This document shows, one piece after another, positions 45,517 to 64,000 of a stretch of 64,000 bases of DNA; the stretch's first letter is position 1, and every line of letters begins with the position of its first letter. The stretch is from assembly GCA_039545355.1 (NCBI GenBank), contig BCJJ01000028.1:248001-312000 (forward strand), in the 5' to 3' direction. The position numbers and the translations under genes are program-made. The notes under the pieces are model-generated. The model did not search any database. It worked only from the letters and a program-made list of their open reading frames with translations, and had not been told where the DNA came from. Source of the stretch: Trichosporon coremiiforme (lineage: Eukaryota; Basidiomycota; Tremellomycetes; Trichosporonales; Trichosporonaceae).

Positions 45517-45604
45517 GTGCGCATAGGCCTGTGCAGCAGTGGGAAGGGTTGTAATGCGTGTATGCATGTACATTCAGATGAACCAACTCCTATCGTCGAC
45601 CGAA

Positions 45605-46995: not shown

Positions 46996-47556
46996 TGTGG
47001 ATGTAGTTGGGAGGTTGAAGAAGAGGGCTGATGGTGACGACCGCTTTGATCTTTTAAGTGCAGGCGTCTAAAGGAATCGGCTACCTCCGCCGCGGTTCCC
47101 ATCTTATCGTTCCAATGGCAGCTCGGAACGGCCTCTTACGCAATGTTTGCGCGTCATGGCTGGCAGACTCGGGTTAAGCGACAACCTGTTGAGTTGTTAG
47201 AGCAGTTTCAGAACTAATGACGACTCACGCGGAACGCAAAAGGAAAGAGAAGCAGAGTGAATGAGAAAGTGAAAGGTAGCGCCAAAAAAGCAAGCACGAA
47301 TGGTGACGAACCCAAGCCGCAGTTTATCTTATCATTTGATTCCCGCTCAGGGACACGGCCGGGTCGCCCATTCCACCCAAGCCTTCGTCTCAAGCCCTAC
47401 CGAGCACGACATTTTCGGCAGAATGGTCTCATCTCCCATCTCGGCTACCTCCGTTGCCCGCATCGGCTTCCGCCAGAGCGAACCGGTGGGCACGCAGCAC
47501 GCTGCATAAATAGCCAGAATGAAGTGCCATCGCTTGCCACCCACACGCACGACACC
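46996..47556. other. intergenic between divergent genes
   Basis: Shared upstream region of the UNC93-like gene and the dioxygenase gene. An ATAAATA box at 47506-47512, 45 bp before the dioxygenase ATG, may be its TATA element. Confidence 0.45.
47506..47512 (+). promoter_or_regulatory. TATA-like box of the dioxygenase gene
   Basis: ATAAATA about 45 bp upstream of the ATG at 47557. Inferred from motif and position. Confidence 0.4.
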
Positions 47557-48714
47557 ATGGCAGCCGTCGCAACCGCACCCGACACTCCTCTCGGCGTCCT
47601 CCCGACTGAAGCAGCGGCGTACTTTGAGCCGTTCGCGCTGCCCGTCTCGAACCAGCGCCAGCTTGGCACTCCGCATGCGCCTGGATCCGTCGCTCCCCTC
47701 GCTCTCCGCCCCAGCAAGGAGATCACGCTCGACGAGGCGGTCTCGACGATCAGCAACCTGCAGAAGACCGGGGTCTTGACGTCTCTGCTCTCGCAACACG
47801 GCGCGCTCCTCTTCCGCGGCGTGCCGGTGCGCAATCCCGCCGACTTCTCTCGCTTCGCGCACTCCTTCGGCTACGCTCCGCACGAGATCATCGGTCTGGT
47901 GGTCGAGCGCGGCGAGCTTGCACCGAACGTGTCGCCGGCGAACGAGAGCTCGAAGGAGACGCTGATCTTCAACCACAACGAGTCGCCGCAGGTGCCGCAC
48001 GCGCCTGAATACATCTTCTTCTACGGGCACCGCGCGCCCAAGGAGGGCGGCGAGACGCCCGTTTCGTCTTCGCTCGAGCTCTTCCGTCGTGCACAGGAGG
48101 AGATCCCTGAGTTCATCGAGCAGCTGGCCAAGCGCGGCGTCCGCTCCAGCGTCACTTACAAGCGCGGACGCCAGTATGCGGGTGGCACGACCATGCAGCA
48201 GGCGTTCGGCAAGGAGTGGGTCGACGGGGATGACGAGGAGACGAAGCGTCGCAAGGTCGAGGATCAAATTCGCCGCTACGGCCGCGGACATGACACGACG
48301 TGGGAGTGGACCGATGATGGAGGCGTCATCGTCACGCACATCCTCCCCGCCATTCGCACGCAGCCCGGCACCGACCTTCCAGTGCTCTTCACCGGCCTTG
48401 CAGCGTACTACCGCAACCTCGTCGTGAACGGGAAGCAGCGTTACGGCGTCTCACAGACGTACGGCGATGGCGAGTCCATCCCCGAGGAGTTCATCAAGCG
48501 CCTCGCTGAGATCACCGACGAGATTACCGTCCTGCACAAGTGGCAGGAGGGCGATCTTCTCGTGTACGATAATGTCATCACGCAGCACGGCCGCCACCCG
48601 TGGAAGGGAGAGCAGAGCGACCGTGTCGTGTACGCCTCCCTCTTTGACGGCGAGGCGCCCGGTGCATACGGTCCGCAGTCGTGGGCGAAGAGCATCAAGG
48701 CCCTTGATGGTTGA
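47557..48714 (+). CDS. TauD/TfdA-family alpha-ketoglutarate-dependent dioxygenase
   Basis: Single exon, 385 residues, non-haem Fe(II)/2-oxoglutarate oxygenase of the TauD/TfdA (clavaminate-synthase-like) family. Visible features: GALLFRGVPVRNPADFSRFA (N-terminal family block), the metal-binding FNHNES (His and acidic residue), PEYIFFYGHRAPKEGGETPV, HKWQEGDLLVYDNVITQHGR with the second metal-binding His, and SDRVVYASLF with the Arg expected to bind the 2-oxoglutarate carboxylate. The triad appears complete, so the enzyme is probably active. The substrate is unknown; taurine, sulfonates or other small acids are typical, and fungal homologues are widely annotated only as dioxygenases. The start at 47557 was chosen over in-frame codons further upstream because of the CACACC-type context and leader. 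Confidence 0.9.
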   Translation: MAAVATAPDTPLGVLPTEAAAYFEPFALPVSNQRQLGTPHAPGSVAPLALRPSKEITLDEAVSTISNLQKTGVLTSLLSQHGALLFRGVPVRNPADFSRFAHSFGYAPHEIIGLVVERGELAPNVSPANESSKETLIFNHNESPQVPHAPEYIFFYGHRAPKEGGETPVSSSLELFRRAQEEIPEFIEQLAKRGVRSSVTYKRGRQYAGGTTMQQAFGKEWVDGDDEETKRRKVEDQIRRYGRGHDTTWEWTDDGGVIVTHILPAIRTQPGTDLPVLFTGLAAYYRNLVVNGKQRYGVSQTYGDGESIPEEFIKRLAEITDEITVLHKWQEGDLLVYDNVITQHGRHPWKGEQSDRVVYASLFDGEAPGAYGPQSWAKSIKALDG

Positions 48715-48810
48715 AAGTCTGGAAGTGTGTAACGAGAAACACTTGAAATGTTGTAGATCTTGGGTTATGCATTGTGAATTAATGATAGTTATCGCGAAAT
48801 CGTCATTTGA

Positions 48811-49911
48811 TTACTTCGTGTACCAGGACAGCTCGGGGCTCGAGTACCAAGGCCGCGGGACAGACTCGTTATCCCACTGTCCGGGCCCGAGCTTCTTCCT
48901 GTACTGAGCAACAGACGGCCATGGGATGTCGTGGAATGCCGCGTTCGCCTTCTTGATCTCGTCGGGACCCATCGGCGTCTGCTCGTCCGCGATATGTCCC
49001 AAGGACTCGACGAGAGTGTCGCGGAGCTCGTCCTGGTCGTCCACGAACTCGAACCCGTACACGCGCCCGCTTACGCAGAGCGCCCCGACCATGGTGATCT
49101 GGCACTTGTGAGCGTTCTGCGCAATGAGCTGTGCAAAGCTGTGGAAGTAGTGCAGCGTCGCATTCGGAATCTGGTAGTCGTCCTTCACTTCGGGTGTCGG
49201 ACCGGCAACCTGGTGGAAGACGAGGACGAGGTCGCGCAGCTCTGGCGGCAGTGTCGTGTTCGCGATGAAAATGAGTTTCGGGTCACGCATGTCGCCGATG
49301 AGGTTGACGACGCACCGACGCACGCCGCGCGGAATCGGGTTAAGGAATAGAGCACGCGACACCGCCCCCTCTGCCACCGGGTCTGCGGCCTTCGCAGCGT
49401 AGCAGAACTGCACGAATGTCCCGTTCTCCGCGTTTCCGGGGAAAGACACCGCCGACGAGGACATGTCGGCGATCTCGCGCTCCGACTCGTAGTTGTTGAG
49501 CATGCGCAGCGTGTGCAGCTTGGGACAAACAGCCTTGATACTCTCCGTTCGCCCACGCATCAAGCCCTCATCGGCCAGATCGAGTGTAGTTGTTCGCGCA
49601 AAGTACTTGCCGAATGCACGCCACTGCGACAGGTCGTCGCCGTTACTTCGCTTCCACGAGCAGAAGAACGGCAATCGCCTCCCACCAGGCGCATGGATCT
49701 CGACTGAACGGGAACCCGCAGACCATATCGGTCTGCCTTGCTCATTCTTTGGACGCCGCACATGCACGACGACGTGCTCCGATAGCCGAGCGTCGGACCA
49801 GTCGCGGTATGTTTTGGAGGTCGGTCGCATGGCGAGCAGCGTGTCGAAGTCCGCATACGAGTAGATAGCCTCCATGATGTGCGGGAACACATTGTGGTCG
49901 ATGACCGTCAT
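48811..49911 (-). CDS. uncharacterised protein with an F-box-like N-terminus
   Basis: Single exon of 366 residues if the ATG at 49911 is used; the frame is open further upstream to 50112, but that part lacks coding character. The N-terminus, IDHNVFPHIMEAIYSYADFD then TLLAMRPTSKTYRDWSDARL, looks like a degenerate F-box helix set (P-hydrophobic-x2-I, then a Leu/Arg helix). A region with leucine-rich or beta-strand character follows (TTTLDLADEGLMRG, KLHTLRMLNNYESEREIADM) and a C-terminus with no recognised domain. F-box proteins recruit substrates to SCF ubiquitin ligases, but that role is only a possibility here. The gene lies next to the first SUMO-like gene on the same strand. Confidence 0.6.
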   Translation of the reverse strand: MTVIDHNVFPHIMEAIYSYADFDTLLAMRPTSKTYRDWSDARLSEHVVVHVRRPKNEQGRPIWSAGSRSVEIHAPGGRRLPFFCSWKRSNGDDLSQWRAFGKYFARTTTLDLADEGLMRGRTESIKAVCPKLHTLRMLNNYESEREIADMSSSAVSFPGNAENGTFVQFCYAAKAADPVAEGAVSRALFLNPIPRGVRRCVVNLIGDMRDPKLIFIANTTLPPELRDLVLVFHQVAGPTPEVKDDYQIPNATLHYFHSFAQLIAQNAHKCQITMVGALCVSGRVYGFEFVDDQDELRDTLVESLGHIADEQTPMGPDEIKKANAAFHDIPWPSVAQYRKKLGPGQWDNESVPRPWYSSPELSWYTK

Positions 49912-50379
49912 GGCGGGCGTGATCACGCTGAAGTGGTTGATCGAAGGCAGGAAGTCAAGCAGTAATCGACCAGGCTCGTTGTGACGTGCTGATCGATCCA
50001 GGGTCGACCGCGACGCGCCGACGCGAACCATAGATAAGGTTACGTAACATGTTCGGATGTCGTTGAACTGGACCACCTGCCATGTCAACTCGTTAGTATA
50101 GAGACTTGGCACATTGAGCCCCGTGGCTATCAGTCTAAGAGAGTTTCGTTAGCTGCGTCCGACACTGCAGCCCCAGTGTCTCTCAATGAAAAACCCGCCT
50201 TCGAGGCGGAACAGCAGTAACGTGGCGGTGGCCCAAGTGGTCTGTCTGCCAATGAAGATGCAACAAGCAGCTATTCAACAAGCTCTACCATCTACATCGC
50301 TCCCTTGCACCAGCTACAAACTCACAGGCGCCCGACCGTAGGAGTATTCGATTTAGTTCATTACAATCGAGTATCACCG
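49912..50379. other. intergenic, no gene seen
   Basis: Spacer between the F-box-like gene and SUMO-like gene A. It contains a tight hairpin CCGCC-TTCGA-GGCGG at 50189-50203, of unknown meaning. Confidence 0.4.
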
Positions 50380-50992
50380 TTAACCACTCCAGTCGTTGGC
50401 GTCTAGTATGAGCGTAAGCAGTGATTGGGTACTCACTGGGGTGGTGGATACAGTCGATTATAACGCCGTCCTCCATGTCCACATCCGCCGGCACCTGATC
50501 GTCCTTGAGCATGTTCCCATCGTAGATAAACTTTGGATCATTCCAGGTCCGGTCGAGGGTAGCAACTCACGAGAGCGCACTGACGCCGCATCCACGGCAG
50601 CGACGGGTAGGCGAAATATGCCTTTTGTCAATCTTCTGCCTTCAGGTGAAAACTCACTTTCAGGCTGCCAAACTTAGTCTTGCGAATGTATGCCCTGATT
50701 GCGAGCTCAATGTTGTTCATCCGCTCAATAACGCGGATTTCAGTCAATTCTGGACCGTAAAATCGAAGTCATTGTCGAGACATACCGGGATCCGAGGGTG
50801 TTTACCCCATCTCTTGGCCTCCTTCACCCATTCTTTGTCCTCGAAAGGAACAGGCACAGGAGTGCGCCTCGCCTCTTCAACTGGATAACAACCATACTTT
50901 GGTTCAAGGTGTCGAGCATTGTCTGAACTCCGGACTCGGCGTCGATGAGTTCGAGATCGTGGAGGACGTGTGGCGATAGATTTCGCAGTCAT
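50380..50992 (-). CDS. SUMO-like protein A (ubiquitin fold, Ser-Gly end)
   Basis: Best model: exons 50806-50992, 50658-50749, 50571-50621, 50437-50530 and 50380-50402, in phase throughout, 148 residues. The N-terminal half is basic and ends EWVKEAKRWGK. The ubiquitin-fold part reads KTKFGSLKAYFAY, then FIYDGNMLKDDQVPADVDM followed by EDGVIIDC, the SUMO block (F-x-F/Y-DG, T/VPAD, DMEDGxxID). The last exon of 23 nt adds NANDWSG, so the protein ends Ser-Gly where SUMO has Gly-Gly. The donor of exon 1 is uncertain: the better GTATGT site at 50780s (after WGKHPRIP) would leave exon 2 one base out of phase, so the GTAAAC site was used. If GTATGT is the true site, the gene carries a frameshift. Confidence 0.65.
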
Positions 50993-51688
50993 GTTCGTTA
51001 ACGCAGAACTCAAGGATAGAGAGGTGTTGACACGTCGTGTTAGATCATGCTATATTTGCTCTTATGTGCCGGGGTTACACCGTCATAGGCTTGCGGGCAC
51101 GATTGTGAAGAGCATCTTCACAGATCATGCCGCAGCGCGGCTCCCCTCCTCCTCGCCCCTTCACGATTTCACCTGCGTGTGACGCCCAGAGAGGGCACCA
51201 CCGCAGCCTGCTGATCAGTTCTGACGTACTGGAGACTTCTATTGCCCTGTGTCGCCCTCATTTCATTCCGCTTGCCCGCTGGCTGCACTACCTTCCGACC
51301 GAGCCCGGCAGAAGTTGACAGGGCGCATGCCGTGTGTGGGCAAACCTTAATGTGCCCCGATCTCCCTTGCTCGCGGTCTGCTGTGAGGAAGCCGCGCTGT
51401 CGCTCCGTCGCCCTGCCGAGGTGAAAGTTGAAATCAGAATGTTGAATCACCTTCAGTGAAACTCTCGCTTTGTGGATCCGGAGTGATAGCGTATGGAAGC
51501 CCGCAACACTTCCGCGCCCATCCCTCCCTCAGCGAGATTGACGCTTCCTTACGAGGTGGCTCCTGGCCCAGTTCACGAAGGAATGCTCGCACGCGTTTCA
51601 CACATTACATTCACTCACGGCTACAGAACCTTGACCACGTCTTTGAACTTCACACGAGACAAGGAATGAACGATCGAGACAGTCGTCG
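50993..51688. other. intergenic between SUMO-like genes A and B
   Basis: About 0.7 kb upstream of gene A and downstream of gene B. No coding frame with motifs. Confidence 0.4.
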
Positions 51689-52305
51689 TTAACCGCTCCG
51701 GACAATGGCATCTGAGATCAGCTTCAGCAGAGGATGGGCACGCACTGGGGTCGGAGTCACAATTAATAATGTCGTTCTCCTCCATGTCGTAGTCTGCGGG
51801 AGTTTGTTCGTCCTCGAGGATCATTCCGTCGAAGCGAAGGCTTAAGGTTGGCCTTCACCATTCCTAAGCACTTGCATAAGGGCTCGGTGCCGCCTTCGCA
51901 ACGCAAAACACGGGCAAGGCGAGTTTAAGGTTAGTTTCATCTGGCAGGACTGTCTTGAGCATACTCTGAGTTGACTGAACTTGCTTGGAGTTGGGTGGGA
52001 CCAGAAGCTATACGTGCGCTCACCCATGCGGGCGGTGAGCCCAATTTTACCTGTCAAATCAATGACTAGTACGAAGACGACCAACAAACTTACCGGATGG
52101 CCGCCCGCTGATATGAGACCACGACTCCGCATCCTTAGCCCTTCTTTCTCGTCAAGAGGAAGGGGGGCAGGGATGCTTTCTGCTTCTGAAGGTCGAGAAG
52201 GCGCTGATTCAAAGAACCGATCTTAGCTCGCACTGCAACCTCTTCTTTGATCAAAGCGGAGGCGGGGAATGTTGAGGCCGGCGAGAGGGTTGATGTGAAG
52301 GTCAT
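51689..52305 (-). pseudogene. SUMO-like gene B, 3' exons clear, 5' part not joinable
   Basis: The two last exons are clear: 51746-51840 (LRFDGMILEDEQTPADYDM, then EENDIIN) and 51689-51711 (23 nt, adding NAIVRSG and a stop), with a 34-nt intron. They match the ends of gene A in size, splice position and sequence. Further upstream KIGLTARMGERTYSF then HPTPSKFSQLR is the first half of the fold, preceded by ESWSHISGRPS, which resembles the Trp motif of genes A and D. The N-terminus from the ATG at 52305 (coiled-coil-like, KIGSLNQRLLDLQKQKAS) is followed by a stop, and the middle exon (near 51855-51930) cannot be joined in a phase that fits both neighbours. Either one or two frameshifts have occurred or the introns are unusual. 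Treated as a probable pseudogene. Confidence 0.6.
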
Positions 52306-52975
52306 CTTGGTTGGTACGAGCTTGTGGGAAGAGTGTGAGGTTGCAACACCATGTCGTGTGCATCTTCCATTCTGACTTCCATGCTGCCCACGAGGGCGCA
52401 AGCTGGGCCAGAACCGGCAAGCCCAGATCTGGGCAGCGACGATCCACAGCACGTCAGGTACACCCGGAACACATCCTGCACGTTCATCGCTGCTTTACGG
52501 CCGTGACCGAGCTAAGTTGACTGCGGCTAAGTTGTCTGCCTCCCAAAACTCATGGCGCCGCTAGTCAACCTCACCATGAAGGTCCCCCGACAGTATCGAA
52601 GCGCTGAGCCATGATCTTCTCCTCGCTCGTCGGCTCTGGATCGGCTCTGGATGAAGAATGTGGTTTTGTGGTCGCGGGATGGAACGGCCCTGCGTCAATT
52701 CGTGCGCACTTGTCACTGGCGGGCGTGTCGTCAGTTCGCCCCCGGTCGTCGGTTCGCTCTGACTACACAACCCTATCAGAGACAGCCAAATTCGCTGAGT
52801 TCTGTCGTCCTGATGGCCAAATCCGGGAGAACGCAGCACCTCTAGACGGGTTCGGCAACTGGCGTAGGCAGATTTTGCCACAGCCCCGCCTGCGTTAGTT
52901 TGGAGAGAGATGCGTTGAAAGCTGTTGGAATTAGCATATAAGCGATCCAGCAGCCTAATAGTAATTAATTCCCGT
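52306..52975. other. intergenic, no gene seen
   Basis: Upstream of gene B and left of the LTR-like repeats. A TGTTGGAATTA at 52923-52933 resembles the outer end of those repeats in opposite orientation. Confidence 0.4.
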
Positions 52976-53679
52976 TGTAGAAATCTAGACTGCCCGGGGC
53001 CCAAGCAACGATGTTGCTCGTAGGGTGGCTAGACTTGAACTGATCAACTGAGAATAGAGAGTGAAGATGCATTGGGTGGCCAGGAGGCCGTTTATATGTC
53101 TAAAGGCAGCTAGAGAACAATAAGACTAGCTGCAGACTACTCGGAAGATGTCGTACGATGTCAGGCGCCGAGGCCGGCGCCTAGAATGCGTGTAAGAGGC
53201 ACGTTGAGCATGTTCTCACCTAGAATAATAGAAACATTGAGAATGGGGGTGCTGACTAGGAGGGTCGAGCTCTGGAGTACGGGCCGAGTGCCGCGAGACA
53301 TGTGGGAAAGAAAACGTGATTTCCAAAACCGTTGTAGAAATCTAGACTGCCCGGGGCCCAAGCAACGATGTTGCTCGTAGGGTGGCTAGACTTGAACTGA
53401 TCAACAGAGAATGTGGTTGCATAGGATGGCCAGATGGCTACTTATATATCTACAGGCAGCTAGAGAACAAAGAGACTAGCTGCAGGCTATCGGAGGATGT
53501 CGTACGGTGTCGGGCGCCGAGGCCGGCGCCGAGAATGCGTGTAAGAAGCATGTTGAGCATGTTCTCAGCTAGAACAATAGAAACATTGAAAACGGGGGTG
53601 CTGACAGGATGTCGAACACCGGAGTACGGGCCGAGTGCCGCGAGACACGTGAAAAAGAAATCACGTAATTTCCAACACA
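52976..53679. repeat. two tandem ~355-bp LTR-like repeats
   Basis: Two direct copies, 52976-53332 and 53333-53679, share most of their sequence with scattered substitutions (roughly 10-15%). Each starts TGTAGAAATC. The second ends near TTTCCAACACA, so the ends resemble an imperfect TG...CA inverted repeat (TGTAGAAAT against TGTTGGAAAT on the other strand), as in LTRs. All three junctions carry CCGT, compatible with a short target duplication. Both copies contain a TATATA-like box in the middle and a GC-rich palindrome (GGCGCCGAGGCCGGCGCC in copy 2). No internal retroelement sequence lies between them. They may be solo LTRs in tandem or a simple tandem duplication. They end about 65 bp upstream of a tRNA gene. 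Confidence 0.7.
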
Positions 53680-53744
53680 CCGTTTTTCCATATCCCAACA
53701 GAAAGCCGAGGCGCGATCCTCCTACTAACTGCAGTTCCAGCATA

Positions 53745-53842
53745 TCTTCGCTAGTATATCGGTTAGTATAATCGCCTCTCAAACGAGAGTTCTTCACTTC
53801 GAGTGATCGCGATAGAGCAGGGTTCGACTCCCTGGCGGAGAA
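53745..53842 (+). tRNA. tRNA-Glu (anticodon CUC) with a 26-nt intron
   Basis: Cloverleaf: acceptor TCTTCGC/GCGGAGA (one G-U pair), TA at positions 8-9, D arm with TCGGTTAG, anticodon stem ATCGC/GCGAT, variable AGAG, T arm CAGGG-TTCGACT-CCCTG and discriminator A. The loop reads C-U-CUC-A-C after removing the intron 53782-53807, placed right after position 37. CUC decodes GAG (Glu). An oligo-T run follows at once. Confidence 0.9.
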
Positions 53843-53845
53843 TCC

Positions 53846-53850
53846 TTTTT
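53846..53850 (+). terminator. RNA polymerase III terminator of tRNA-Glu
   Basis: TTTTT four bases after the tRNA 3' end, the usual Pol III stop signal. Confidence 0.7.
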
Positions 53851-55293
53851 GAATATCGCTCAATCGAAACGTGCAATGACGGAAGGTTGTTAGTGGACGG
53901 GGGATGGGATAGCAAACGGTGGTGGTATGCGGTAGGACGTCGGATGTAGCGGCGCGATGCGATCAGAACGAGGTCAGAGGGCGTGCAGAGGTCCATGGGT
54001 GAAGCGGCACGACGATGTGAGTAAGGGGGGCGTCCCGGACCCGAACCGTCGCCGAACAGGATGGATGAATGCGATGGGTCTCAGGCGTCTTGTCGTGAGG
54101 GATGGGAAGACATCAGAAATCCGGAATTGCAAGGTATCGTGCAATCAAGCATAGGAGGCCAGAGGTAGCGATGCGGGGCCAATCCCACGTTACCGGCTAA
54201 CACGGCGGCTTGGCAGGAGAGCGCTCACCCATATCTGTCACGGCCAGGAGCAGCTGGCTCAGCTGATCAGACATGCGACTTGGCTTCCCCACTGACGAAC
54301 TCTACGCGCTTCGCAGAGGTCATCTGCAGCTCATCTCAAGGTCATCTGCCCGCTGCGTGCCCATTCTGCCCACCCGGATCGGAACATGGGCTGCCGCGCG
54401 TGGACATTTCCCAGGCGGCCAAGCCGCCATGCCATGCCGGGCGTCACTTGCGAACTGAAGAACAGAGCTGGTGAACGGGCCTGGGCACGGGTTCGCCGAG
54501 ATTCAGATCGGTGCATGGACGTCCGTGATGCTATTCTAATCGTCCACATTCCTTGGTGCAGTGGGCGCAGTCGGGCAGCTAAGCGCTCGCGGACCGACAT
54601 CCAAGGGTGCGGCGCGTGCGGCGGATCGCGTGCACCGCGGGCAAAGCCACAATCCAAAGCCACAACGACACATTGCATATCTCCGGTCTCTCCGGTATGG
54701 CAGGGCGGAGCGTGTTTCGACCTGCACAATCAATGGATCGTGGGGTCTGGCATGCGAGTAACGGGCCGTATATGCGGAAGCATCACTCGGCACAGCGGAA
54801 TTGCCCGCAGTCATCGCCGCAAGGCTGCACGCCGAGGAATTAAGTTCAGTGATCGGCAAACGCCGGGGGCTCGCCTTTGGCGATGATCCACGGAGTAGTC
54901 GTCCAGTGACGAGTGATGTCGGACAGGCAGCAGCGGACGCTCGTGCGACATGACCCGTATCGAGGGCGAGCCATAGCTGATACGGTCCGATAACGCGTCT
55001 GTTCGTCACCGGCCGCGAATGCCAAGATAAAGGCGCCTGGTGAAGCATGTGGTGCATAGAGTCTGTGCTGGACTGCTGAACAAGGCGGCGCCTGAGCTCG
55101 GCCTGAGGCCGGCCAGAGGCGTTTCCGACTGTCCGGGCTGTCTCATCTGGCCGCCCCTTGACCAACGAAAGGGGGAAGTCCGGGGCCAAAACTGGCTGTG
55201 TGAATGGTGATGAATCGCACCCTTGAGCTCCTTTCCGAGACGCTGCCCAAACCCCGAGACGGTCCCTTGCAGCCCCGCGCCTCCGCCTCCGGG
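53851..55293. other. intergenic, no gene seen
   Basis: About 1.4 kb. The long minus-strand frame 54536-55426 overlaps the kinase gene out of frame and has no motifs. Nothing else was supported. Confidence 0.4.
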
Positions 55294-55839
55294 TCAAGGA
55301 TCCAGAACGGTCTGAATAATGCGATGCGCGAGCGGACCCGAAGGTTGGTTGGTGTCGAAGGTGGGGCCCGGTAATCCGGCCGAATCCAGGATCATGGCAA
55401 GTTCCGGGGCCCTCTTCATATGCCATCGCAGCTCGTCTTCGTCTTCATGCCGTGCAAGCAGCCTCTGCTTAACAACGCTGGGTGGGGCCACAAGCATTAC
55501 GTGGTCGAAGATCGCTCCCCCCACTCCAAGGCCGTCCTGGTATTGTCGCAGCTGATGCGTCGTCTCGATGACTCCGGCCAGGACGACGATCTGCACGCCC
55601 GCGGCCCTGTAGTTCGCAGCCACGGAAATCACATTCGCGAGCGTTAACCGGAAGTCGAAAAGGTCATCGGCCGGCGAGGGCCAGCGCCTCGACAGCTGAT
55701 CAATGTCAATGACTGCGTGGGGAATCCGCCTCTCTTCCAAGACAGTTCCTATGGTGGTGGCAGTTGTTGTTTTTCCCGAGCCGACTGTACCATTGAGGAA
55801 AATGGTTCGTGCGGCCGTGTCATGGGCGTCGGTCGACAT
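55294..55839 (-). CDS. P-loop nucleoside/adenylyl kinase-like protein
   Basis: Single exon, 181 residues. The N-terminus has a clear Walker A motif (FLNGTVGSGKTTTATTIG) and then DIDQLSRRW and RLTLANVISVAANYRAAGVQ, like small bacterial P-loop kinases of the APS/gluconate/shikimate kinase type or AAA_33 ATP-binding proteins. A later stretch (FDHVMLVAPPSVVKQRLLAR then HEDEDELRWHMKRAPEL) fits the strand and Arg-bearing lid helix of that fold. Proteins of this appearance are common in actinobacteria. The lack of introns, in a region where most genes have them, also fits transfer from bacteria, but that is inference. The phosphate acceptor is unknown. The gene stands alone between non-coding spacers. 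Confidence 0.8.
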   Translation of the reverse strand: MSTDAHDTAARTIFLNGTVGSGKTTTATTIGTVLEERRIPHAVIDIDQLSRRWPSPADDLFDFRLTLANVISVAANYRAAGVQIVVLAGVIETTHQLRQYQDGLGVGGAIFDHVMLVAPPSVVKQRLLARHEDEDELRWHMKRAPELAMILDSAGLPGPTFDTNQPSGPLAHRIIQTVLDP

Positions 55840-57374
55840 TACAGAAAGCTTGATTGGGCGGCAGAACGGTCGAGATAGAGAGATACAGGGATGCAGGGAA
55901 CGCCAAAGGCTTACCCATCGTACTCATCGTTTCTATCGCAACGTTTTTCCGCCCGTCCTTTGGCCCTGCCCGATTCTGCCGGGTGTGCAGTTTATTGGCC
56001 TTGAGAGCATGAGATCCAGCATCCTTTGCAGTGCGTAAAGACTATTGGACACGGCACCAGGGTATCCAGGGTGCAACGGCGACTATGCCGTACGGCACGA
56101 GCCGTTCCGTAGTCGCCGAGCGCCCCTTCTCACGTGCCCCGCTTGGGCCTCTGCGCTCTGCCGCCAGCACTGATCGGGCAGCAAACCTCAGCAGTAAGCA
56201 AACGTAAACGGAGACCTGGGTACGGCCATGACCAGTGTCTGTGCGATGCTATTGGATTGCTTCGTAGTCGTATACCTGCCTGCTGTTGTGACAAATGGCC
56301 AACCTCTACGGAGAGCACGCCATATCTGATGGGCTCCCGTACAATGAACCTCGTCCGTAACAAGGGGGAGGGGGATGTCACCGACTACAGCTGAAGGAAG
56401 CGTATCAGGGTTGGACGATGGCAGCTCGAAAAAATCTAGGATCTAGGATCAGCTGTCCAAGCCTCGCCATGGCGGGCCAGGTGGCTGCAGACGACCAGAG
56501 AAAATCTAGCGCCCGTCATGTTGGGTACTCGTGGCAAGACTGCGGTTCCATGATGGGAATTCCTCTCACAGTGAATGCATGGAGAGGCAAGCGGCGGAGA
56601 TGTGAATCCGGAGCTCGTTGAGCCCCACCTGGCCAAGATCCGGGACTCCAAGGTTCATCCCGAGCGATCGCGAGGCATGGAGCGGATGAAGGGGACGAAG
56701 GGGACGAAGGGCATCCCCACCGAGAGTCCCCAAGCGGTGCGGTGCGCTTACTGGAGTGAGGGCGGCCAAGGCCACGGACCACTGGCCGCAGTTCGATGCC
56801 TCGGTTCGTCGGGCAGTGAGGGCAGAAGAGGGAGGGGAGAGAGCGAGCGAGGTGGCTAGAAGGACTTGCAGGAGGACTAGGATGCGGGAGGGCCGTCCGG
56901 CGACCCAAAAGTCTCAACGAGTGGGTGGATGCTCAGGGTTCAAGGGCAGTTCTATTGCCGTCCTCTGGGCGCGCTCGGCTCCCCAGGGCGCGCAGGGCGG
57001 CAAAAGTTGCCAGCACGGCAAAAGGCCTCGAGGCCGCCACCATCACCTGGGCGATCCCGCCCTGAGCAAACTCAGGCACCATCTTGTGCACCATGTGGAG
57101 CCAACTGTAAACCCTGCATCCGTTATCCGGACATCGAACCAGCACCTCGCCTTTGCTCCTTCTCCCTCTCCTAGCCCTCCTGCCTCTTCCGCGCGTTTGT
57201 GGCCTATCATCCCCGTTGGCCCGTCGCGCTCTTGCCCTAGCGCACCCACAATATGCGGAGAGTGCCCAGAGCCTCGGACCTGGGGCCGCCAGGCATCCGG
57301 CTCTGGTCCCAGCAAAATATAAAGTCGCAAGGCTACGGACCCACTCGGTTTTTCTAATCCCTCAACCAGACATC
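55840..57374. other. intergenic between divergent genes
   Basis: About 1.5 kb shared by the kinase-like gene (left) and the peptide transporter (right). No coding frame with motifs. The last 60 bp holds a TATAAA box. Confidence 0.4.
57318..57323 (+). promoter_or_regulatory. TATA box of the peptide transporter gene
   Basis: TATAAA about 55 bp upstream of the ATG at 57375. Inferred from motif and position. Confidence 0.5.
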
Positions 57375-59424
57375 ATGCCCGCCGTCCAGGAGGAGCTCAA
57401 GCACCACGACGTGGTCACGGACGTCCACGCCGTCAACGACGAGAAGAAGGGACTCGACGATGATGGCGACGTTGGCCAGATCATCGGTCACCCCGACCAG
57501 GACCCCGAGACGATTCCCACCGCCGAGGAGCTTCGCACCCTCCGCAAGGTGCCCGCCGCCATGCCCCTCGTCGGTCTCGCGATGTGTCTGATCGAGTTCT
57601 CCGAGCGTGCCTCGTACTACGGCTCGCAGGGCCCCTTCAACAACTTCCTGGTGAGTGGATGACAAACCAGCTTCGGCAGGGTTGGTGGCGCAGCTGAAGG
57701 TGGCGCTACAACCTCCTCCCCACATCCCCTGCAACCCGCGTCGCCGATCTTGCTCGCAACTGGCATGGCAACCAAACGCCCTCCTGTTGTCCCCATTGCA
57801 TTCAGCTGACATTCAGGCCCACCCTCTCCCTCCTGGAGGTAACGGTGCCGGTGCTGTCGCCAAGGGCCCGGCCGGTGAGCAGCAGAGTGCCGGTGCTCTC
57901 GACCAGGGCTCCGTCACGACCTCTGCTGTTACGAAGATGTTTACGTTCCTCGCGTACTTGACCCCTATCTACGGTGGCATCGTTGCCGACAACAAGCTCG
58001 GTCGCTTCAAGACGATCTGCATCGGAACGGCCATTGGAGCCATTGCTCACGTTGTTCTCATTTTCCCGGCCCTCCCCTCGGTTATTCAGAAGGATCCCAA
58101 GGGTTCTCTCGCTGGTTTCATCATCTCTATCATTGTCCTCGCTTTCGCTGCTGGCTTCATTAAGCCCTCGCTTGGTCCCCTGCTGTGTGACCAGTCGCCT
58201 GTGAAAGCCCCCACGATCAAGACGACCAAGAAGGGCGAGCGTGTCGTTATCGACCCCCAATTCACCGTTTCGAACTACCTCAACACGTTCTACCTGTGTA
58301 TCAACATCGGTGCCCTCTTCCAGCTCGCCACCCAGTACGCCGCGCACGACATCGGCTTCTGGCTCGCCTTCCTCCTCCCCGGTATCCTCTACATGCTTAT
58401 GCCCATCGTCCTTGTTTGGGCTAACAAGCGCCTCGTCAAGCTCCCTCCTTCCGGCTCGGTCATCCCCGACACTTTCCGTGTCATTGGCATGTGTATCAAG
58501 AAGGGCGGCGCCTTTGGCTGGCTCAAGGGCGGCGACAAGTTCTGGGCCAGCGCTCGCCCCTCGTACTTGCGTGAGACTGAGGGCTACGTCGACGAGTCGA
58601 AGGTTCACTGGGACGACCGCTTCGTTGAGGAGGTCCGTCAGACCATCGCGGCCTGTGGTGTCTTCATGCTTATCCCGATCTTCGTCATCGCCGACGCCGG
58701 CTCTGGCGGCCTCGGTAACATGTTCAACGACATGTCCGTCGGTATGACCAAGAACGGTGTTCCCAACGATCTCCTTAACAACTTCAACTCCATCGCCATC
58801 ATCGTCGCCTCGCCCATCATCAACTACATCGTCTATCCTTTCTTCGTCAAGATCGGCTACCCCATCAAGCCCATGATGCGCATGTGCATTGGCTTCATTC
58901 TGGGAGCCGTTGGATGTGCTGTGGGGGCCTACTTGCAGGACAAGATTTACAAGACCTCGCCGTGTGGCAAGTACGCCTCCACCTGTATGGTTGACGGCAA
59001 CGCCGGCGTTTCTCCCGTCTCCCTCTGGCTCCAGATCCCTGTCGTGGCCCTCCCTGCTATCGGCGAGATCTTCGTGAACGTCACCTCGTACGAGCTGGCT
59101 TACACCCGTGCTCCTCCTTCAATGCGTGGACTGGTTTACTCACTCGCTCTTTTCAACTCGTGTGTGGCGGCTGCCATTTCCATGGCTGTCTCCTCGGCCC
59201 TGACCGACCCTAACCTGGCCATTATCTGGATGGTTATCGCTGCGGTCACGTTCGCGTGCGCGTTCGTCTTCCCCACCTACTTCCGTCACCTCGACGACTT
59301 CCAGTTCGAGTGGAAGGAGGATGAGCGTGCCCAGATTTCGGACGTCAAGAAGGGCGATGTGGAGGCCTCGCCCCGTACGTCCCTGTCGGCCCCTGCCGCC
59401 CCTGCCGACCACGAGAAATTCTAA
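57375..59424 (+). CDS. PTR2: proton-coupled oligopeptide transporter (POT/PTR2)
   Basis: Plasma-membrane H+/di- and tripeptide symporter. Exons 57375-57650 and 57817-59424 with a 166-nt intron give 627 residues. An acidic N-terminal tail (~60 residues) precedes LIEFSERASYYGSQGPFNNF, the PTR2 signature with the E-x-x-E/R-x-x-Y-Y-G element. The join gives NNFLAHPLPPGGNGAGAVAK, then TFLAYLTPIYGGIVADNKLGRF, the second family signature, and FIKPSLGPLLCDQSP. Further helices include MRMCIGFILGAVGCAVGAYL and SYELAYTRAPPSMRGLVYSL (third signature). About twelve membrane segments are expected. The C-terminal tail is charged (WKEDERAQISDVKKGDVEAS). Third positions are strongly C/T biased, as in highly expressed genes. 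Confidence 0.95.
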
Positions 59425-61568
59425 TCTGCTTCCGTCTCGGGGCTTGAACATTAGACCAGCCCGTGCAGACCACTGCGGCCTGCGTATAAGCAGAAACGTA
59501 AACAAACACTCTCTCTCTCTCTTTATCCAGTAATCTAATCCGTAATTGTAGTTTAGACCCCGGGCATGTCATCTCTGTGACAATCTTGTGACCAGCAAAG
59601 CTCAGCAGCGAGCACCATGGAAGCGCACAGAATGGAGATCGCACGTGACGGCGCTACAACCGAGGATCCTGTCAGAGCAGAGGGCGACGATGCTGTCACG
59701 CGCTATCACGCGCTATCACGCGCGTCCCTGCCCCCTTTCGTCCTTCGATTGGCCAAGCACGCGCCAGCGTCACGAGCACTGGCTGTTTCTCGCCATGTCC
59801 GGCATTCCCTCCAGGCTGAGCCGGACCGCTCACCGAGCATTGTCCCCTCTACCATCTTGGTGCAGCCAAGTCACTCCGGCATCGGTAGCGAGCGGCAGCG
59901 GTATTCGCAGCGGCGTTCCCATGGCACGGCGCACGTCCCTACGGCCGTCGACGGACAGTGGGGGAGTGGCGTTCTTGCATAAGTCGGCGCAGTGGAGTGC
60001 ACTATGCTTGGCTGACGCTGAGCAGACCGCACTGTGGGGAGGAAGCAAAGTCAGATGCCCCACAAGCGGCGCTTTCGCCGGCCGAGTAACACAGCGGCAA
60101 TACCACGACGCGGACGACGCTGGTCGGGCAGAATTACCGCACTACGGCACTACGGAGACAGGGAACGTGACCGTCCCTTGGCGCAGGCCCTGGCCCCGTG
60201 CACACAACCCCGAGGGGCCCGACCCTGGAGGAACGCAGGAACCAAGGAACGATTGCGATGCCTGGTTATGAGTATCTCCCATCTCACGCTTAAGCCCGAT
60301 AGGGGGTTGACTGTAGCATTCCTCCTTATCTCCTTCCCGCGGCCCACTGTCCCCTCGACGCCCCCTTCCACCGCCGCATCGGGGCCTCGCTAGCGCCGTC
60401 GAAAGTCGCCGGCCGGAGCTAGCTCTTCAATCCTGCGTCCTGCGAGGCATACCCTGCGATGCCGCATCCTCGGGCCGAGGCCAGATTGATTCTCGCACGC
60501 CCCGCAGCCGTACATCGCTGACTCCAGCGCAAACACGAGGCGTTAAGCCTTCGCCAGCGCGTTCTTTGTTTCGGTGCCCGTGCCGACCTCCGAGCTGCGG
60601 CTACGTTGACTGCATCGGTAGAACCGCGATACATCCGTTCTCTGTCAGCAAAGAACGATGGTCCGCGATAAGACTTGTCATGCTGCTTTACTCCAAAGTC
60701 CCACAACTCCAACTTCTCTGCATCTGACAGCGTTAATAACGTATACGGCCAAGATCGGCCCCGGCTCCACATTCCTTCGTGAATCTGCCGAGCTGGAAGC
60801 GGTAACGAAGGTCGAGAGCTCGCTTGACCTCTCGACCGAGTGGAACCATAACGGACTGGGCAACTTGACTCCGCAATCCGTTCCAGTCGCCAGTCGCAAT
60901 CCAACAACTCCACTCCGCAATTGTTGCAAACGTCACTATACTCCTATGCCTGCTGCGCCGCTGATCCAGAAGAGTACGGAAGATAGGTACAAGTGGGATC
61001 GGACGGAGAGCCGCGGCATTGAGGGGGACGCTGTTGACAGCAGCGATAACGGTCTGAATTGCGCAGTTCCAAATATAGCGACTGGTTCCTCATTTCACTC
61101 TGATGTTGGTTGAGATAAACGACCGGCGACTAGACCATCCCACGATTACTGACATGCAGGCTTGCGAGGAACATGAACGTGGGCGCGAAGCTGTTTGAGG
61201 CGCAGCATGAAGTGCCAGTGGAGCTAACTTTTGTGGACGCTAACTGCGCCGGCGGCGCTGTCAATGCGACCGTCTGTGCGACCACGAGCTGTTGGTTCCG
61301 TCTGTACACCTCACCCCGCCTCACCCCAAGTTGATGCCGTGCAGTCGTCCTCGACCTTTCTGGCGTCTGACTCTCCACAATCTGACACTCATGACCACCG
61401 ACGCCCCAGTCTCCTCATGCAGATTCCGCTCATCTGCTGACGGCAACGCCCTCGACATGAGTTCATCAGTGTTCTCGGCAAACCGTTCCCGTGCGAAACT
61501 AACCCAGACATGACATCTTTCTTCTCCCTTCCCCACGTCACATTGACCATCAGACCACTCGATCGAAC
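59425..61568. other. long intergenic stretch, no gene seen
   Basis: About 2.1 kb. A CT repeat near 59506-59525 is in the 3' flank of the transporter. A short tandem CGCGCTATCA duplication is at 59698-59720. Minus-strand frames at 60419-60913 and 61130-61378 have no motifs. The right end is the promoter of SUMO-like gene C. Confidence 0.4.
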
Positions 61569-62218
61569 ATGCCGTCTTCTCCTCGGTCTGACCCTGCTTC
61601 GAACGGCAGTGCAACCGGCCCCAACGTCAGGCGCCCGTCCAAGATCAAGAGGGCCGCCTCTCGCTTCAAGACGCTCTTCACAAGGAAGAAGAACGGCCAA
61701 CAGACGAAACCAGCCCAGAACACCTCACGAAAGGACAGGGGGACTCGGGCGACTCCAAGGGATGCGGTGGCAGACAAGAAGGTCGTTCAAGACCCGTCGA
61801 CCGAGGTCGAGCCGTCTGAGCCCCCTCGTCCAGCCAAGGCGCTGATCTCCGAGACCAAGGCAAAGGGTATGTGTGACTCTCTAGTCGGCAGTGCTGACCC
61901 CCAGATCTCATTGAGCTAAGTGTGCGTATGGAAGCGAAGCAGAAGCGCAAGCGCTACTATGTTGATGCGGGCGAGTGCCCGATCAGCGTCATCAAAGTGA
62001 GACGGACGTGTTACGACGAGGCTGACATGATAGGCCATGTTTGCGGACGAGTACAACCTCACTGGAGGCGCTGGCGCGTTGACGTGTGTATGCGACCACA
62101 CGTGAAGCTGACCTGCAGCCTACGATTTGACGGCCACCGCCTTCGTGACGACTCTACGCCCGATCAATACGACATGGAGTCTGGTGACCTTATCGACGCC
62201 TTTCACAATGAGGACTAG
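61569..62218 (+). CDS. SUMO-like protein C (no di-glycine)
   Basis: Four exons: 61569-61866, 61905-61996, 62034-62083 and 62119-62218, with introns of 38, 37 and 35 nt, all with CTGAC branch sites; 179 residues. The N-terminal ~100 residues are basic and Ser/Pro-rich (KIKRAASRFKTLFTRKKNGQ). The ubiquitin fold starts DLIELSVRMEAKQKRKRYYV, continues ECPISVIKAMFADEY and has the SUMO block LRFDGHRLRDDSTPDQYDM followed by ESGDLIDAF. The protein stops at HNED, without Gly-Gly and without the extra 23-nt exon of genes A, B and D, so it should not be conjugated by the normal SUMO route. It may act like the SUMO-like domains of Rad60/Esc2-type proteins, but it has one domain only and a different N-terminus. 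Confidence 0.8.
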
Positions 62219-62794
62219 CTCTAGCCTGGGACGATGCACAATATTGCTGTGTCCGCCATCCACCGAGGGGGAACTGGAATTCGGGCGTCAGAGGTCTCAT
62301 GTGTATTCGGCAGGAGCTGCCGATGATGCGCAACTCACATAGCCCAGTCGAGGCTATCGACCGTGCCACGTAATATCCTGCGCGCTAAGAAGCCACTTAC
62401 ACCGCTAAATTAGCTCCCCTTCTCCTGATGTTGCAGGATGAGGCGGATGATGTTCAAGCAAACTGGGCGTGATCGCCAATGCTCGGCAGCCTCAGCAACG
62501 TAGTCTGAGGGCAGCGTTTCTCTGAGAAACGCATGGGACTCTCACGTTACTCCGCAAATCCTGCATTCCGCCGCTCTCGGAAAGTTTGCCAGTGCCCAGC
62601 GGACGAGCACGTAACATCCTCGATCGTGTTGCGCTGCGGAGGCAAACGATCCCGGTATCACAGGAGAATCGCGGACTATCGACTCCATCAGTTGGCGTCG
62701 GGCGTCGGGGGTTGGGAGTTGGTCGACCGAGTGTTACCGCGGCCCCTATCACATGTGGGTCGGCCGTCTCGCGGAGGTTTGGTCGGCAGCATAG
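62219..62794. other. spacer that may hold the first exon of SUMO-like gene D
   Basis: Between genes C and D. An open frame from the ATG at 62533 could supply D's first exon if a GTGTTA donor (about 62731) is used, with the acceptor CATAG at 62794. That join keeps phase 0 but the branch site is weak, so the start of D is left open. Confidence 0.35.
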
Positions 62795-63300
62795 CGGTCG
62801 CAGAGCAAGTGCGCTCCGATTCCCGATGACATCAAGCCTTGGGTCCGTGAGGGAAAATCCTGGGGCAAACCTGGGCCGAAGGAACTCGGTTAGCTGCCCA
62901 ACGACTACGGGGCGAAGCTCACAGTAGGCCAAATGACGCTGAACATCTGCATCGGAGAGAAATCCTGCCACGTCCACGTGTCACCCCAAGTCTGTTTCAT
63001 GTCCGTCAAAGCAGGTGCGAAGTGATACCAACACAACTCAGCGCTGACATGCTTCGCAGGCTTTCATTGCCCCAGAATACTATCCCGCGAAGAGCCCCGG
63101 CGCTCTCATGTGAGCGACCGCAACAATACGAGCTGCTGGCGTACCGGTCCGATGTTCGATGGCAAGCGTCGGAAGGATCATGAATGCCTTGAGAAGTGCG
63201 AGATGGAAGATGACGATCAGATCGACTGTTGGTACAACCCTGGTGAGTAGAGTTGGTCCACCTTTTACCCACAATAGACAAGTTCACTTGGGGTGGTTAG
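62795..63300 (+). CDS. SUMO-like protein D, ends Gly-Gly (5' end unresolved)
   Basis: Exons 62795-62888, 62925-63014, 63060-63242 and 63278-63300 join in phase. The first exon reads CAPIPDDIKPWVREGKSWGK, the same Trp motif as gene A (EWVKEAKRWGK). The fold follows: GQMTLNICIGEKSCHVHV, then CFMSVKAGFHCPRI, MFDGKRRKDHECLEKCEM and EDDDQIDCWYNP. The final 23-nt exon adds DKFTWGG and a stop, so the chain ends in Gly-Gly, the form that mature SUMO uses for conjugation. Between the two halves, where gene A has an intron, D keeps an unspliced GTGAGC with no good acceptor, and the frame simply reads through, giving a longer loop. The DG and DMED-like positions are more diverged than in A-C. The 5' exon and start are not established. 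Confidence 0.65.
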
Positions 63301-63835
63301 GAGCTCGTTGTACCCCGACTCGTCCAGGGGACTTGGCACATCCGTCGGTAGTTAGAAGACGAGCTCTAGGGACCGATGTGTAGTGCTCCCGACAACTTGC
63401 TCAGCAGTGCAGTAGCCTCTGTGAATGAATGCGATGATCGCAATCGTTGTGCGTGCTGCAGCCCTCACTGGGGGACGCTTGCGGGTGCAGAGTGAAGAAG
63501 GGAGGGCTACTGTATCCCGATTTCTCATGGTTCCCTAGGATGAGGCTGCTGAAGATGGCCTACTCCCTCGTCCAATGCCGAACAGAACTCGGTTCCCTGG
63601 TGAAAACACTGATGACCTCGTGCATAGTCCACTCTCTGCCGAGGCTACCACTTCACGGACTCGCGGCCGCTCCCCCCTTGCTGCACATGTTCACCTTGTG
63701 TGATTGCGTCACGCAGGTCTGACTTCTTGTTAAGCATAACTCAAGCATTGGTAACGAGTGTTGCTGATGAATGTTTCGGCTTTTCTTCCATCCGCTTCCT
63801 AGCGTACTTACACCTCTTCGCTCATCCTACACGCC
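63301..63835. other. intergenic, no gene seen
   Basis: Spacer between SUMO-like gene D and the partial copy E. Small frames have no motifs. Confidence 0.4.
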
Positions 63836-64000
63836 ATGATCATTGACACCAAGCCACCCTCATCGATCTTCGACTTCTGCTAACCCAGCTTCATGACTAA
63901 GCGTGCCTGAGTCCTGCTCGAGGTGAAGGCTTGGGTCATGGAAGCTCAGAAGTGAGGGACGCGTCCCCGAAAGCCACCCGGTAAGCACTCAGATCCCCAT
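63836..64000 (+). pseudogene. partial fifth SUMO-like copy E at window edge, with nonsense codon
   Basis: The stretch 63923-63980 reads LLEVKAWVMEAQK, a stop, then GTRPRKPP and a GTAAGC donor at 63981. This lines up with EDKEWVKEAKRWGK..PRIP before a GT donor in gene A and IKPWVREGKSWGKPGPKEL before GTTAGC in gene D. At the position of the conserved Trp (TGG in A and D) E has TGA (63953-63955). The ATG at 63836 opens only a 15-codon frame. It appears to be a decayed copy; the ubiquitin-fold part would lie beyond the window. Confidence 0.5.

What the first reader, a model, noticed from the sequence alone, without database searches (positions are those of the whole stretch)
50380..64000. A local family of five SUMO-like (ubiquitin-fold) loci
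Four separate places encode the SUMO block around F-x-x-DG, TPxDYDM and EDGxxID (A: KDDQVPADVDMEDG; B: EDEQTPADYDMEEND; C: RDDSTPDQYDMESGD; D: MFDGKRRKD...EMEDDDQID). A fifth (E) has only the N-terminal Trp motif before the edge. Most fungi have one conventional SUMO gene plus Rad60/Esc2-type proteins, so several small single-domain paralogues within 14 kb are unexpected. They sit on both strands, differ in state of decay and are separated by LTR-like repeats and other genes, so the family may be expanding and dying quickly. It could be a lineage-specific set of SUMO-pathway decoys, regulators or modifiers. I know of no description of such a family, but I cannot search.
Basis: partly seen in the sequence, partly recalled or inferred. 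Interest (0 to 1): 0.88.

Follow-up and report, generated by a model that had tools for sequence, protein, structure and literature searches.

The report
Fungal SUMO family with ready-made tails
This fungus carries, besides its normal SUMO protein tag, a family of diverged SUMO copies in two paired gene clusters, most of which end exactly at a glycine, so they are predicted to need no trimming before use and would likely be hard to remove from other proteins; in this stretch of DNA four of the five copies look broken.

Summary
Held-out profiles find the SUMO block at all four window places (28.9-44.1 bits; best of 20 shuffles 9.4), and E continues past the window edge. The set is not local: the genome has 17 such loci in two homeologous cluster pairs, besides the normal SUMO pair. 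Eight models share all three introns of the normal SUMO gene, in place and phase; the two C copies share two. So they descend from a SUMO gene rather than from Rad60/Esc2.

In 7 of 9 locus groups it ends [G/S/A]-Gly-stop, with nothing left for a SUMO protease to trim. The four homeologous pairs testable at full length (C, F, G, H) are under purifying selection (omega 0.08-0.21); C matches an annotated Trichosporon asahii protein.

By my models 8 of 17 loci are intact. In the window A, B, D and E are broken; only C is intact, and C has no glycine tail.

Best reading (inferred): translated-mature SUMO variants, probably conjugatable and Ulp-resistant, plus a tail-less branch (C) that likely acts non-covalently. 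E1-stalling decoys are the main rival. No protein, RNA or structure evidence was obtained.

The parts
50380..50990 (-). Locus A (A28): broken SUMO paralogue. Trp-motif exon from 50842 downwards, SUMO exon 50530-50438, tail exon 50402-50380 ending NANDWSG-stop; N-terminal part is out of frame with the rest.
   Evidence: held-out profile 40.0 bits; joined string 23.9 bits to PF11976, cut-off 23.8.
51689..52305 (-). Locus B (B28): broken SUMO paralogue. SUMO exon 51839-51747, tail exon 51711-51689 ending NAIVRSG-stop; frameshifts near the Trp motif and a poor splice site after the helix exon.
   Evidence: held-out profile 38.1 bits; 25.7 bits to PF11976.
61569..62218 (+). Locus C (C28): intact by my model. 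Exons 61569-61866, 61905-61996, 62034-62083, 62119-62218; 179 aa; basic N-terminus, SUMO-like domain, ends DAFHNED without glycine tail or Trp motif.
   Evidence: 30.6 bits to PF11976; omega 0.209 against its homeolog; T. asahii A1Q1_02537, 65% identity.
62825..63300 (+). Locus D (D28): broken SUMO paralogue. Trp motif at 62825, SUMO exon 63152-63241, tail exon 63278-63300 ending DKFTWGG-stop; one donor and one acceptor no longer fit.
   Evidence: held-out profile 28.9 bits; below the Pfam cut-off (17.2 bits).
63920..64000 (+). Locus E (E28), first part: Trp motif. The SUMO exon follows at contig position 312244-312336, outside the window; frameshifted; DLSG present but no stop after it.
   Evidence: held-out profile 28.9 bits.
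52972..53660 (.). LTR-like direct repeats between B and C; setting, not part of the family.
   Evidence: four aligned blocks, 80-99% identity, copies 347-357 nt apart.

Best explanation
These loci belong to a fungal family of SUMO paralogues that share the normal SUMO gene's introns, and most of them end exactly at a [Gly/Ser/Ala]-Gly, so that they would be translated already mature, likely charged by the SUMO enzymes without protease trimming and likely resistant to removal. Shown: common descent with the SUMO gene (introns, profiles), the encoded glycine ends, purifying selection on four groups, decay of others. Inferred: that E1 accepts these longer tails, that conjugates form, and that Ulp proteases cut them poorly. 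Locus C, the one intact gene in the window, belongs to a tail-less branch with a basic N-terminus and is inferred to act non-covalently, as the SUMO-like domain of Rad60 does at the E2. Loci A, B, D and E in the window are decaying copies.
For: Introns: the normal SUMO gene has phases 0, 2, 1 at KLNKLK|, |LLFDG and E|QIGG; B16, D16, F2, F16, G2, G16, H2, H16 have all three in place, C28 and C16 the first two, while the Rad60-like pair reads through this domain in one frame. Ends: 7 of 9 groups, and 7 of the 8 intact models, end [G/S/A]G-stop, 12-13 residues after the beta-5 Ile/Val. Selection: omega 0.209 (C), 0.125 (G), 0.078 (H), 0.091 (F), each far from 1 (2dlnL 45-89). A profile without the normal SUMO finds yeast Smt3 chains at 1.3e-12. 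Relatives: 11 metagenome proteins for F/G, T. asahii and metagenome proteins for C. Literature: URM1, ATG12 and FAT10 are translated in mature form (PMC7600729, passages); Smt3-G97A, with Ala before the last Gly, keeps near-normal conjugates while its defects point to Ulp-dependent deconjugation (PMC5319795, passages). The residue at the E1/Ulp contact R71 is R or K in B16, C28, D16, F2, G2 and H2, and S in the Rad60-like protein (contacts).
Against: No biochemistry, RNA or structure. The tails are 3-4 residues longer from beta-5 to the last Gly than in mature normal SUMO (9), so E1 fit is uncertain. A ubiquitin variant ending YQTYSG is charged by the NEDD8 E1 but not passed to its E2, and replacing Arg74 or Gly75 in ubiquitin blocks transfer to E3s (PMC3731359, passages). 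G and H lack the E2-contact Asp68 (N and G there). Tails are related by descent, so their shared end is not independent evidence each time. 9 of 17 loci look broken. Four intact models use AAG or GAG acceptors (B16, D16, G2, G16). D28 falls below the Pfam cut-off.
Confidence: 0.5

Rival explanations
1. E1-stalling decoys: the SG-ended proteins are charged by the SUMO E1 but not passed on, and so hold down sumoylation.
For: Ubiquitin variant N27 (YQTYSG) forms the E1 thioester with NAE but not the E2 thioester (PMC3731359, passages); four of the seven glycine-ended groups end SG (A, B, D', H). Only one pair of UAE_UbL matches, taken as the SUMO E1, is found, so such decoys would compete for the normal E1.
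Against: In ubiquitin Ser at position 75 does not affect transfer from the ubiquitin E1 to E2, only later steps (same paper); yeast Smt3 with Ala there still conjugates (PMC5319795); F and D end GG.
Confidence: 0.2
2. Non-covalent SUMO mimics only: the domains bind Ubc9 or SUMO-binding sites and the glycine end has no chemistry, as for Rad60 SLD2.
For: C has no tail yet is conserved. Rad60 SLD2 lacks the tail needed for E1 and binds Ubc9 (PMC2946365, passages). B16, C28, D16 and F2 keep the Asp68 equivalent that contacts Ubc9.
Against: Does not explain why 7 of 9 groups keep [G/S/A]G as the last two residues on diverged tails of constant length.
Confidence: 0.2
3. Mostly dead duplicates: tandem SUMO copies without function in various stages of decay.
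For: 9 of 17 loci have frameshifts, in-frame stops or lost splice sites by my models.
Against: Omega 0.08-0.21 for C, F, G and H; relatives in other samples and species. Even the SUMO exon of A and D pairs shows omega 0.04 and 0.25 on 30-31 codons, which suggests recent decay.
Confidence: 0.1

Closest known systems
SUMO / Smt3, the single modifier of budding yeast and its pair here (C2, C4)
   Same: Domain profile, three intron positions and phases, basic residue at the R71 contact.
   Different: The normal protein ends QIGGSL and needs trimming; the paralogues end [G/S/A]G-stop on a longer tail or, in C, have no tail; many carry an N-terminal Trp motif; 22-41% identity between intact members of different groups.
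Arabidopsis SUMO family (PMC6680281, passages read)
   Same: Eight paralogues by genome and tandem duplication, some pseudogenes, fast-changing members.
   Different: A plant case; the passages read describe a diGly end exposed by processing. Encoded-mature SG/AG ends are not mentioned in those passages.
Rad60/Esc2/NIP45 SUMO-like domains (PMC2946365, passages read)
   Same: C has the domain without a conjugation tail.
   Different: One domain, shared SUMO introns, a basic residue at the R71 contact; the Rad60-like pair of this genome is a separate gene (C8, C22).
URM1, ATG12, FAT10 (modifiers translated in mature form; PMC7600729, passages read)
   Same: The reading frame ends at the reactive end.
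   Different: Other families with their own routes; no sequence comparison was made here.

Membership tests
SUMO family (by descent) | SUMO/Rad60-SLD domain by curated profile | tested here: met
   6 of 7 strings tested pass PF11976 (B16 27.1, C28 30.6, A28 23.9, D16 31.5, F2 35.2, G2 39.9 bits; cut-off 23.8); D28 does not (17.2).
SUMO family (by descent) | Gene structure of SUMO | tested here: met
   3 of 3 introns in eight models, 2 in the two C models.
Conjugatable SUMO | C-terminal Gly-Gly in the mature protein | tested here: not met
   GG in F2, F16 and D28 only; SG or AG in A, B, D', G, H; none in C.
Conjugatable SUMO | Precursor extension removed by Ulp | tested here: not met
   The stop follows the last glycine directly in 7 of 9 groups.
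Conjugatable SUMO | Charging by Aos1/Uba2 and Ubc9 and attachment to lysine | not testable with these tools
   Needs biochemistry.
Conjugatable SUMO | SUMO fold | tested here: inconclusive
   Profile match to Smt3 chains; no structure model made.
Rad60/Esc2/NIP45 | Two SUMO-like domains at the C-terminus | tested here: not met
   Intact models are 145-189 aa with a single Pfam match region in those scanned.
Rad60/Esc2/NIP45 | Binds Ubc9 without being conjugated | not testable with these tools
   Possible for C; untested.

The most novel reading that the evidence does not exclude
A second tier of SUMO signalling in Trichosporon-type fungi: several SUMO variants are made in mature form, attach without Ulp activation and stay on, giving SUMO marks outside protease control, under fast birth-and-death evolution.
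Probability: 0.27. Interest if true: 0.85.

Novelty: new variant of a known kind. Interest (0 to 1): 0.68.

Why it matters
Budding yeast lives with one essential SUMO gene (PMC5319795, abstract). A natural set of paralogues with encoded ends SG, AG and GG on a nearly constant tail length lets one ask directly what the residue before the last glycine does for E1 charging, E2 transfer and protease removal, so far approached with engineered mutants (PMC5319795, PMC3731359, passages). If some act as E1 decoys, they would be natural inhibitors of sumoylation; if they are conjugated and stable, they would be SUMO marks that proteases cannot easily erase.

Tried and rejected
Rejected: chance matches; a Rad60/Esc2 origin (introns, one domain); retroposed copies (introns kept); wholly dead copies. 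The domain tree left its deep forks unresolved and warned of long branches, so it carries no weight. The first automatic gene models chose the longest, often wrong, joins; anchored joins replaced them. On the 31-codon SUMO exon A28 is nearer to B16 (t 1.0) than to its positional partner A16 (t 3.3), so gene conversion or rearrangement is possible and the A/B pairing is unsure; the E pair is saturated. B16 as protein query gave one metagenome protein only, its first exon. The shuffle of tail residues (0 of 200,000) treats related tails as independent and is illustrative only. ARAGORN found no tRNA in 45000-64000. Papers: the listings showed no description of SUMO paralogues in Trichosporonales; one search listed 12 of 4,848 papers. 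PMC7026411, PMC12820176 and PMC6642101 have no word beginning SUMO in the main text held. Most subscription papers are not held, so absence from print is not proven. Notebook entry 2 is superseded here: it lists C16 and D28 among intact loci and says blastn pairs all five loci, which the later calls do not bear out.
Full report
What was checked. The window lies at G000:C28:248001-312000 in a 42.0-Mb, 134-contig assembly. Window position = C28 position minus 248,000. Labels A-H, D' and X16 are mine; a suffix gives the contig (B16 = copy of B on C16; D' has one copy, called D16).

The blocks are real. Profiles built without the scored group give A 40.0, B 38.1, C 44.1, D 28.9 and E 28.9 bits on C28; no unlabelled stretch exceeds 4.0 and the best of 20 shuffles is 9.4. 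PF11976 over the genome gives 37 matches at E<=1, 26 over the cut-off. Ten of the 26 lie on C9, C10, C31 and C5 and look like ubiquitin repeats or fusions (those on C9, C31 and C5 were read). The rest include the normal SUMO pair, a Rad60-like pair (C8, C22) and these loci.

The set is larger than the window. C28:289-321 kb is collinear, inverted, with C16:976-1006 kb, in pieces of 68-90% identity. Within it blastn reaches loci A, C and D (D28 pairs with X16 at C16:980.6-980.9 kb); B and E are paired by order and profile only, and D' (C16:982.9-982.3 kb) was seen only on C16. A second cluster of three genes in a row (H, F, G) sits at C16:363.5-365.9 kb and, homeologous, at C2:2,152.0-2,154.4 kb. 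The profile finds 19 places in the held regions: the normal SUMO pair and 17 loci, 11 in the first cluster pair and 6 in the second. Two further SUMO-type pieces on C49 (near 59.0 and 60.5 kb) were not modelled or counted. Whole-genome searches score only the best candidates, so 17 is a lower bound. Paired regions of this kind fit a hybrid Trichosporon: T. coremiiforme JCM 2938 is listed with 42,353,277 bases (PMC7026411, passages). The species is not given; C has 65% identity to a T. asahii protein, so it is likely a Trichosporon other than T. asahii (inference).

Anatomy. The normal SUMO gene has introns of phase 0 after KLNKLK, phase 2 before LLFDG and phase 1 before the last exon (E|QIGGSL). 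B16, D16, F2, F16, G2, G16, H2 and H16 have all three at the matching places; C28 and C16 have the first two. Ends, each followed by a stop: A28 NANDWSG, A16 NAINWSG, B28 NAIVRSG, B16 NAIDWSG, D28 DKFTWGG, D16 RQWDLSG, F2 SRIHGG, F16 SRMHGG, G2 DYIPMAG, G16 DYTPMAG, H2 DQLELSG, H16 DQIELSG. E28 and E16 show DLSG without a stop after it; X16 keeps TWGG but has no stop and no donor there. C28 ends DAFHNED, C16 DAFLSDE, T. asahii DAFYKDS. By group, 7 of 9 (A, B, D, D', F, G, H) end [G/S/A]G-stop; E and C do not. Of the 8 intact models, 7 do. From the beta-5 Ile/Val to the last residue there are 12 (F) or 13 (others) residues, against 9 to the last Gly of mature normal SUMO. A Trp motif (such as KPWVxEAxxW) stands before the domain in A, B16, D, D', E and F, with a looser form in H; B28 keeps only part of it, G and C lack it.

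Intact or not. Intact by my models, 8 of 17: C28, B16, D16, F2, G2, G16, H2, H16. Broken, 9 of 17: A28, A16, B28, E28, E16 (frameshifts), C16 (one splice acceptor missing), D28 (a donor and an acceptor no longer fit), X16 (donor and stop lost), F16 (in-frame stop; the metagenome protein P0011 is open there). Four acceptors in intact models end AAG or GAG (B16, D16, G2, G16). Unseen splicing could move a locus from one list to the other.

Selection (my own GY94-type fit): omega C28/C16 0.209 over 179 codons, G2/G16 0.125 over 180, H2/H16 0.078 over 157, F2/F16 0.091 over 175; 2dlnL against omega 1 is 45.5, 78.8, 86.6 and 89.5. In two of these pairs one copy is broken (C16, F16), so the values reflect mostly earlier constraint. 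The normal SUMO pair has no difference in 81 residues (dS 1.03), so the paralogues evolve much faster than SUMO. B16/D16 is saturated and was not used. On the 30-31-codon SUMO exon alone, A28/A16 gives 0.04, B28/B16 0.15, D28/X16 0.25, C 0.03, F 0.17, G 0.04, H 0.02; E28/E16 and E16/D16 did not give usable distances.

Other lineages. One G-like and one F-like protein list a longest contig of the same length (11,022), which may be one contig. The C pair finds four proteins: T. asahii A1Q1_02537 and A1Q2_06576 and two from metagenomes. A1Q1_02537 aligns through the exon joins of my model; A1Q2_06576 departs from it in the first beta strands. No T. asahii G or F protein was returned, which may mean absence or lack of annotation. 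Three such searches were allowed; A, D', E and H were not searched.

Mechanism. Shown: SUMO descent, encoded glycine ends, constraint. Inferred: charging, transfer, stability. The yeast Smt3 contact R71 (E1, Ulp) is R or K in B16, C28, D16, F2, G2 and H2 and S in the Rad60-like protein; the Ubc9 contact D68 is D in B16, C28, D16 and F2, N in G2 and G in H2 (read; contacts from PMC5319795 and PMC8636563, passages). Smt3-G97A keeps near-normal conjugates while its defects point to Ulp-dependent deconjugation (PMC5319795, passages). That favours conjugatable, removal-resistant variants. Against it, a Ser before the last Gly stalls ubiquitin variants: with the NEDD8 enzymes at E1-to-E2 transfer, and in the ubiquitin cascade replacements of Arg74 and Gly75 block transfer to E3s (PMC3731359, passages), which favours decoys. 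One pair of UAE_UbL matches suggests that there is one SUMO E1 per subgenome, so either kind would share it. Peptidase_C48 (Ulp) matches lie at one place each on C18, C19 and C49.

Locus C. It keeps the domain and the D68 and R71 equivalents, has a basic N-terminus (PSKIKRAASRFKTLF) and no tail. Rad60 SLD2 likewise lacks the tail needed for E1 and binds Ubc9 (PMC2946365, passages). The simplest inference is non-covalent binding; no partner is known.

Verdict. A real SUMO paralogue family with an unusual, encoded-mature end; the window holds one intact tail-less member and four relics. Function is untested.

Noticed in passing
G000:C49:58.6-60.65 kb (L038): Two further SUMO-type pieces, on opposite strands; the + strand one ends near an IGGG string, the - strand one near STRLG. 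A Peptidase_C48 (Ulp-type) match lies about 13-15 kb away at C49:45.2-46.0 kb.
   Followed up: partly
whole assembly: Genes and regions occur in diverged pairs (C28/C16, C16/C2, C2/C4 SUMO, C8/C22, C14/C3), as in a hybrid genome.
   Followed up: partly
A, B16, D, D', E, F, H, before the domain: A conserved Trp motif (KPWVxEAxxW-like) of unknown meaning; in the Pfam scan it gave no match above a cut-off.
   Followed up: no
A28 (window 50438-50530) and B16: The SUMO exon of A28 is nearer to B16 than to its positional partner A16: possible gene conversion between clusters or subgenomes.
   Followed up: no
window 52972-53660: LTR-like direct repeats in tandem, about 350 nt apart, 80-99% identity by block.
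   Followed up: no
window 57655-59424 (+): PTR2/POT peptide transporter gene between B and C (PF00854, 175.6 bits); the region is collinear with C16.
   Followed up: no
window 55294-55923 (-): Reading frame with weak AAA_33/AAA_18 kinase-like matches below the curated cut-offs (24.6 and 24.4 bits).
   Followed up: no
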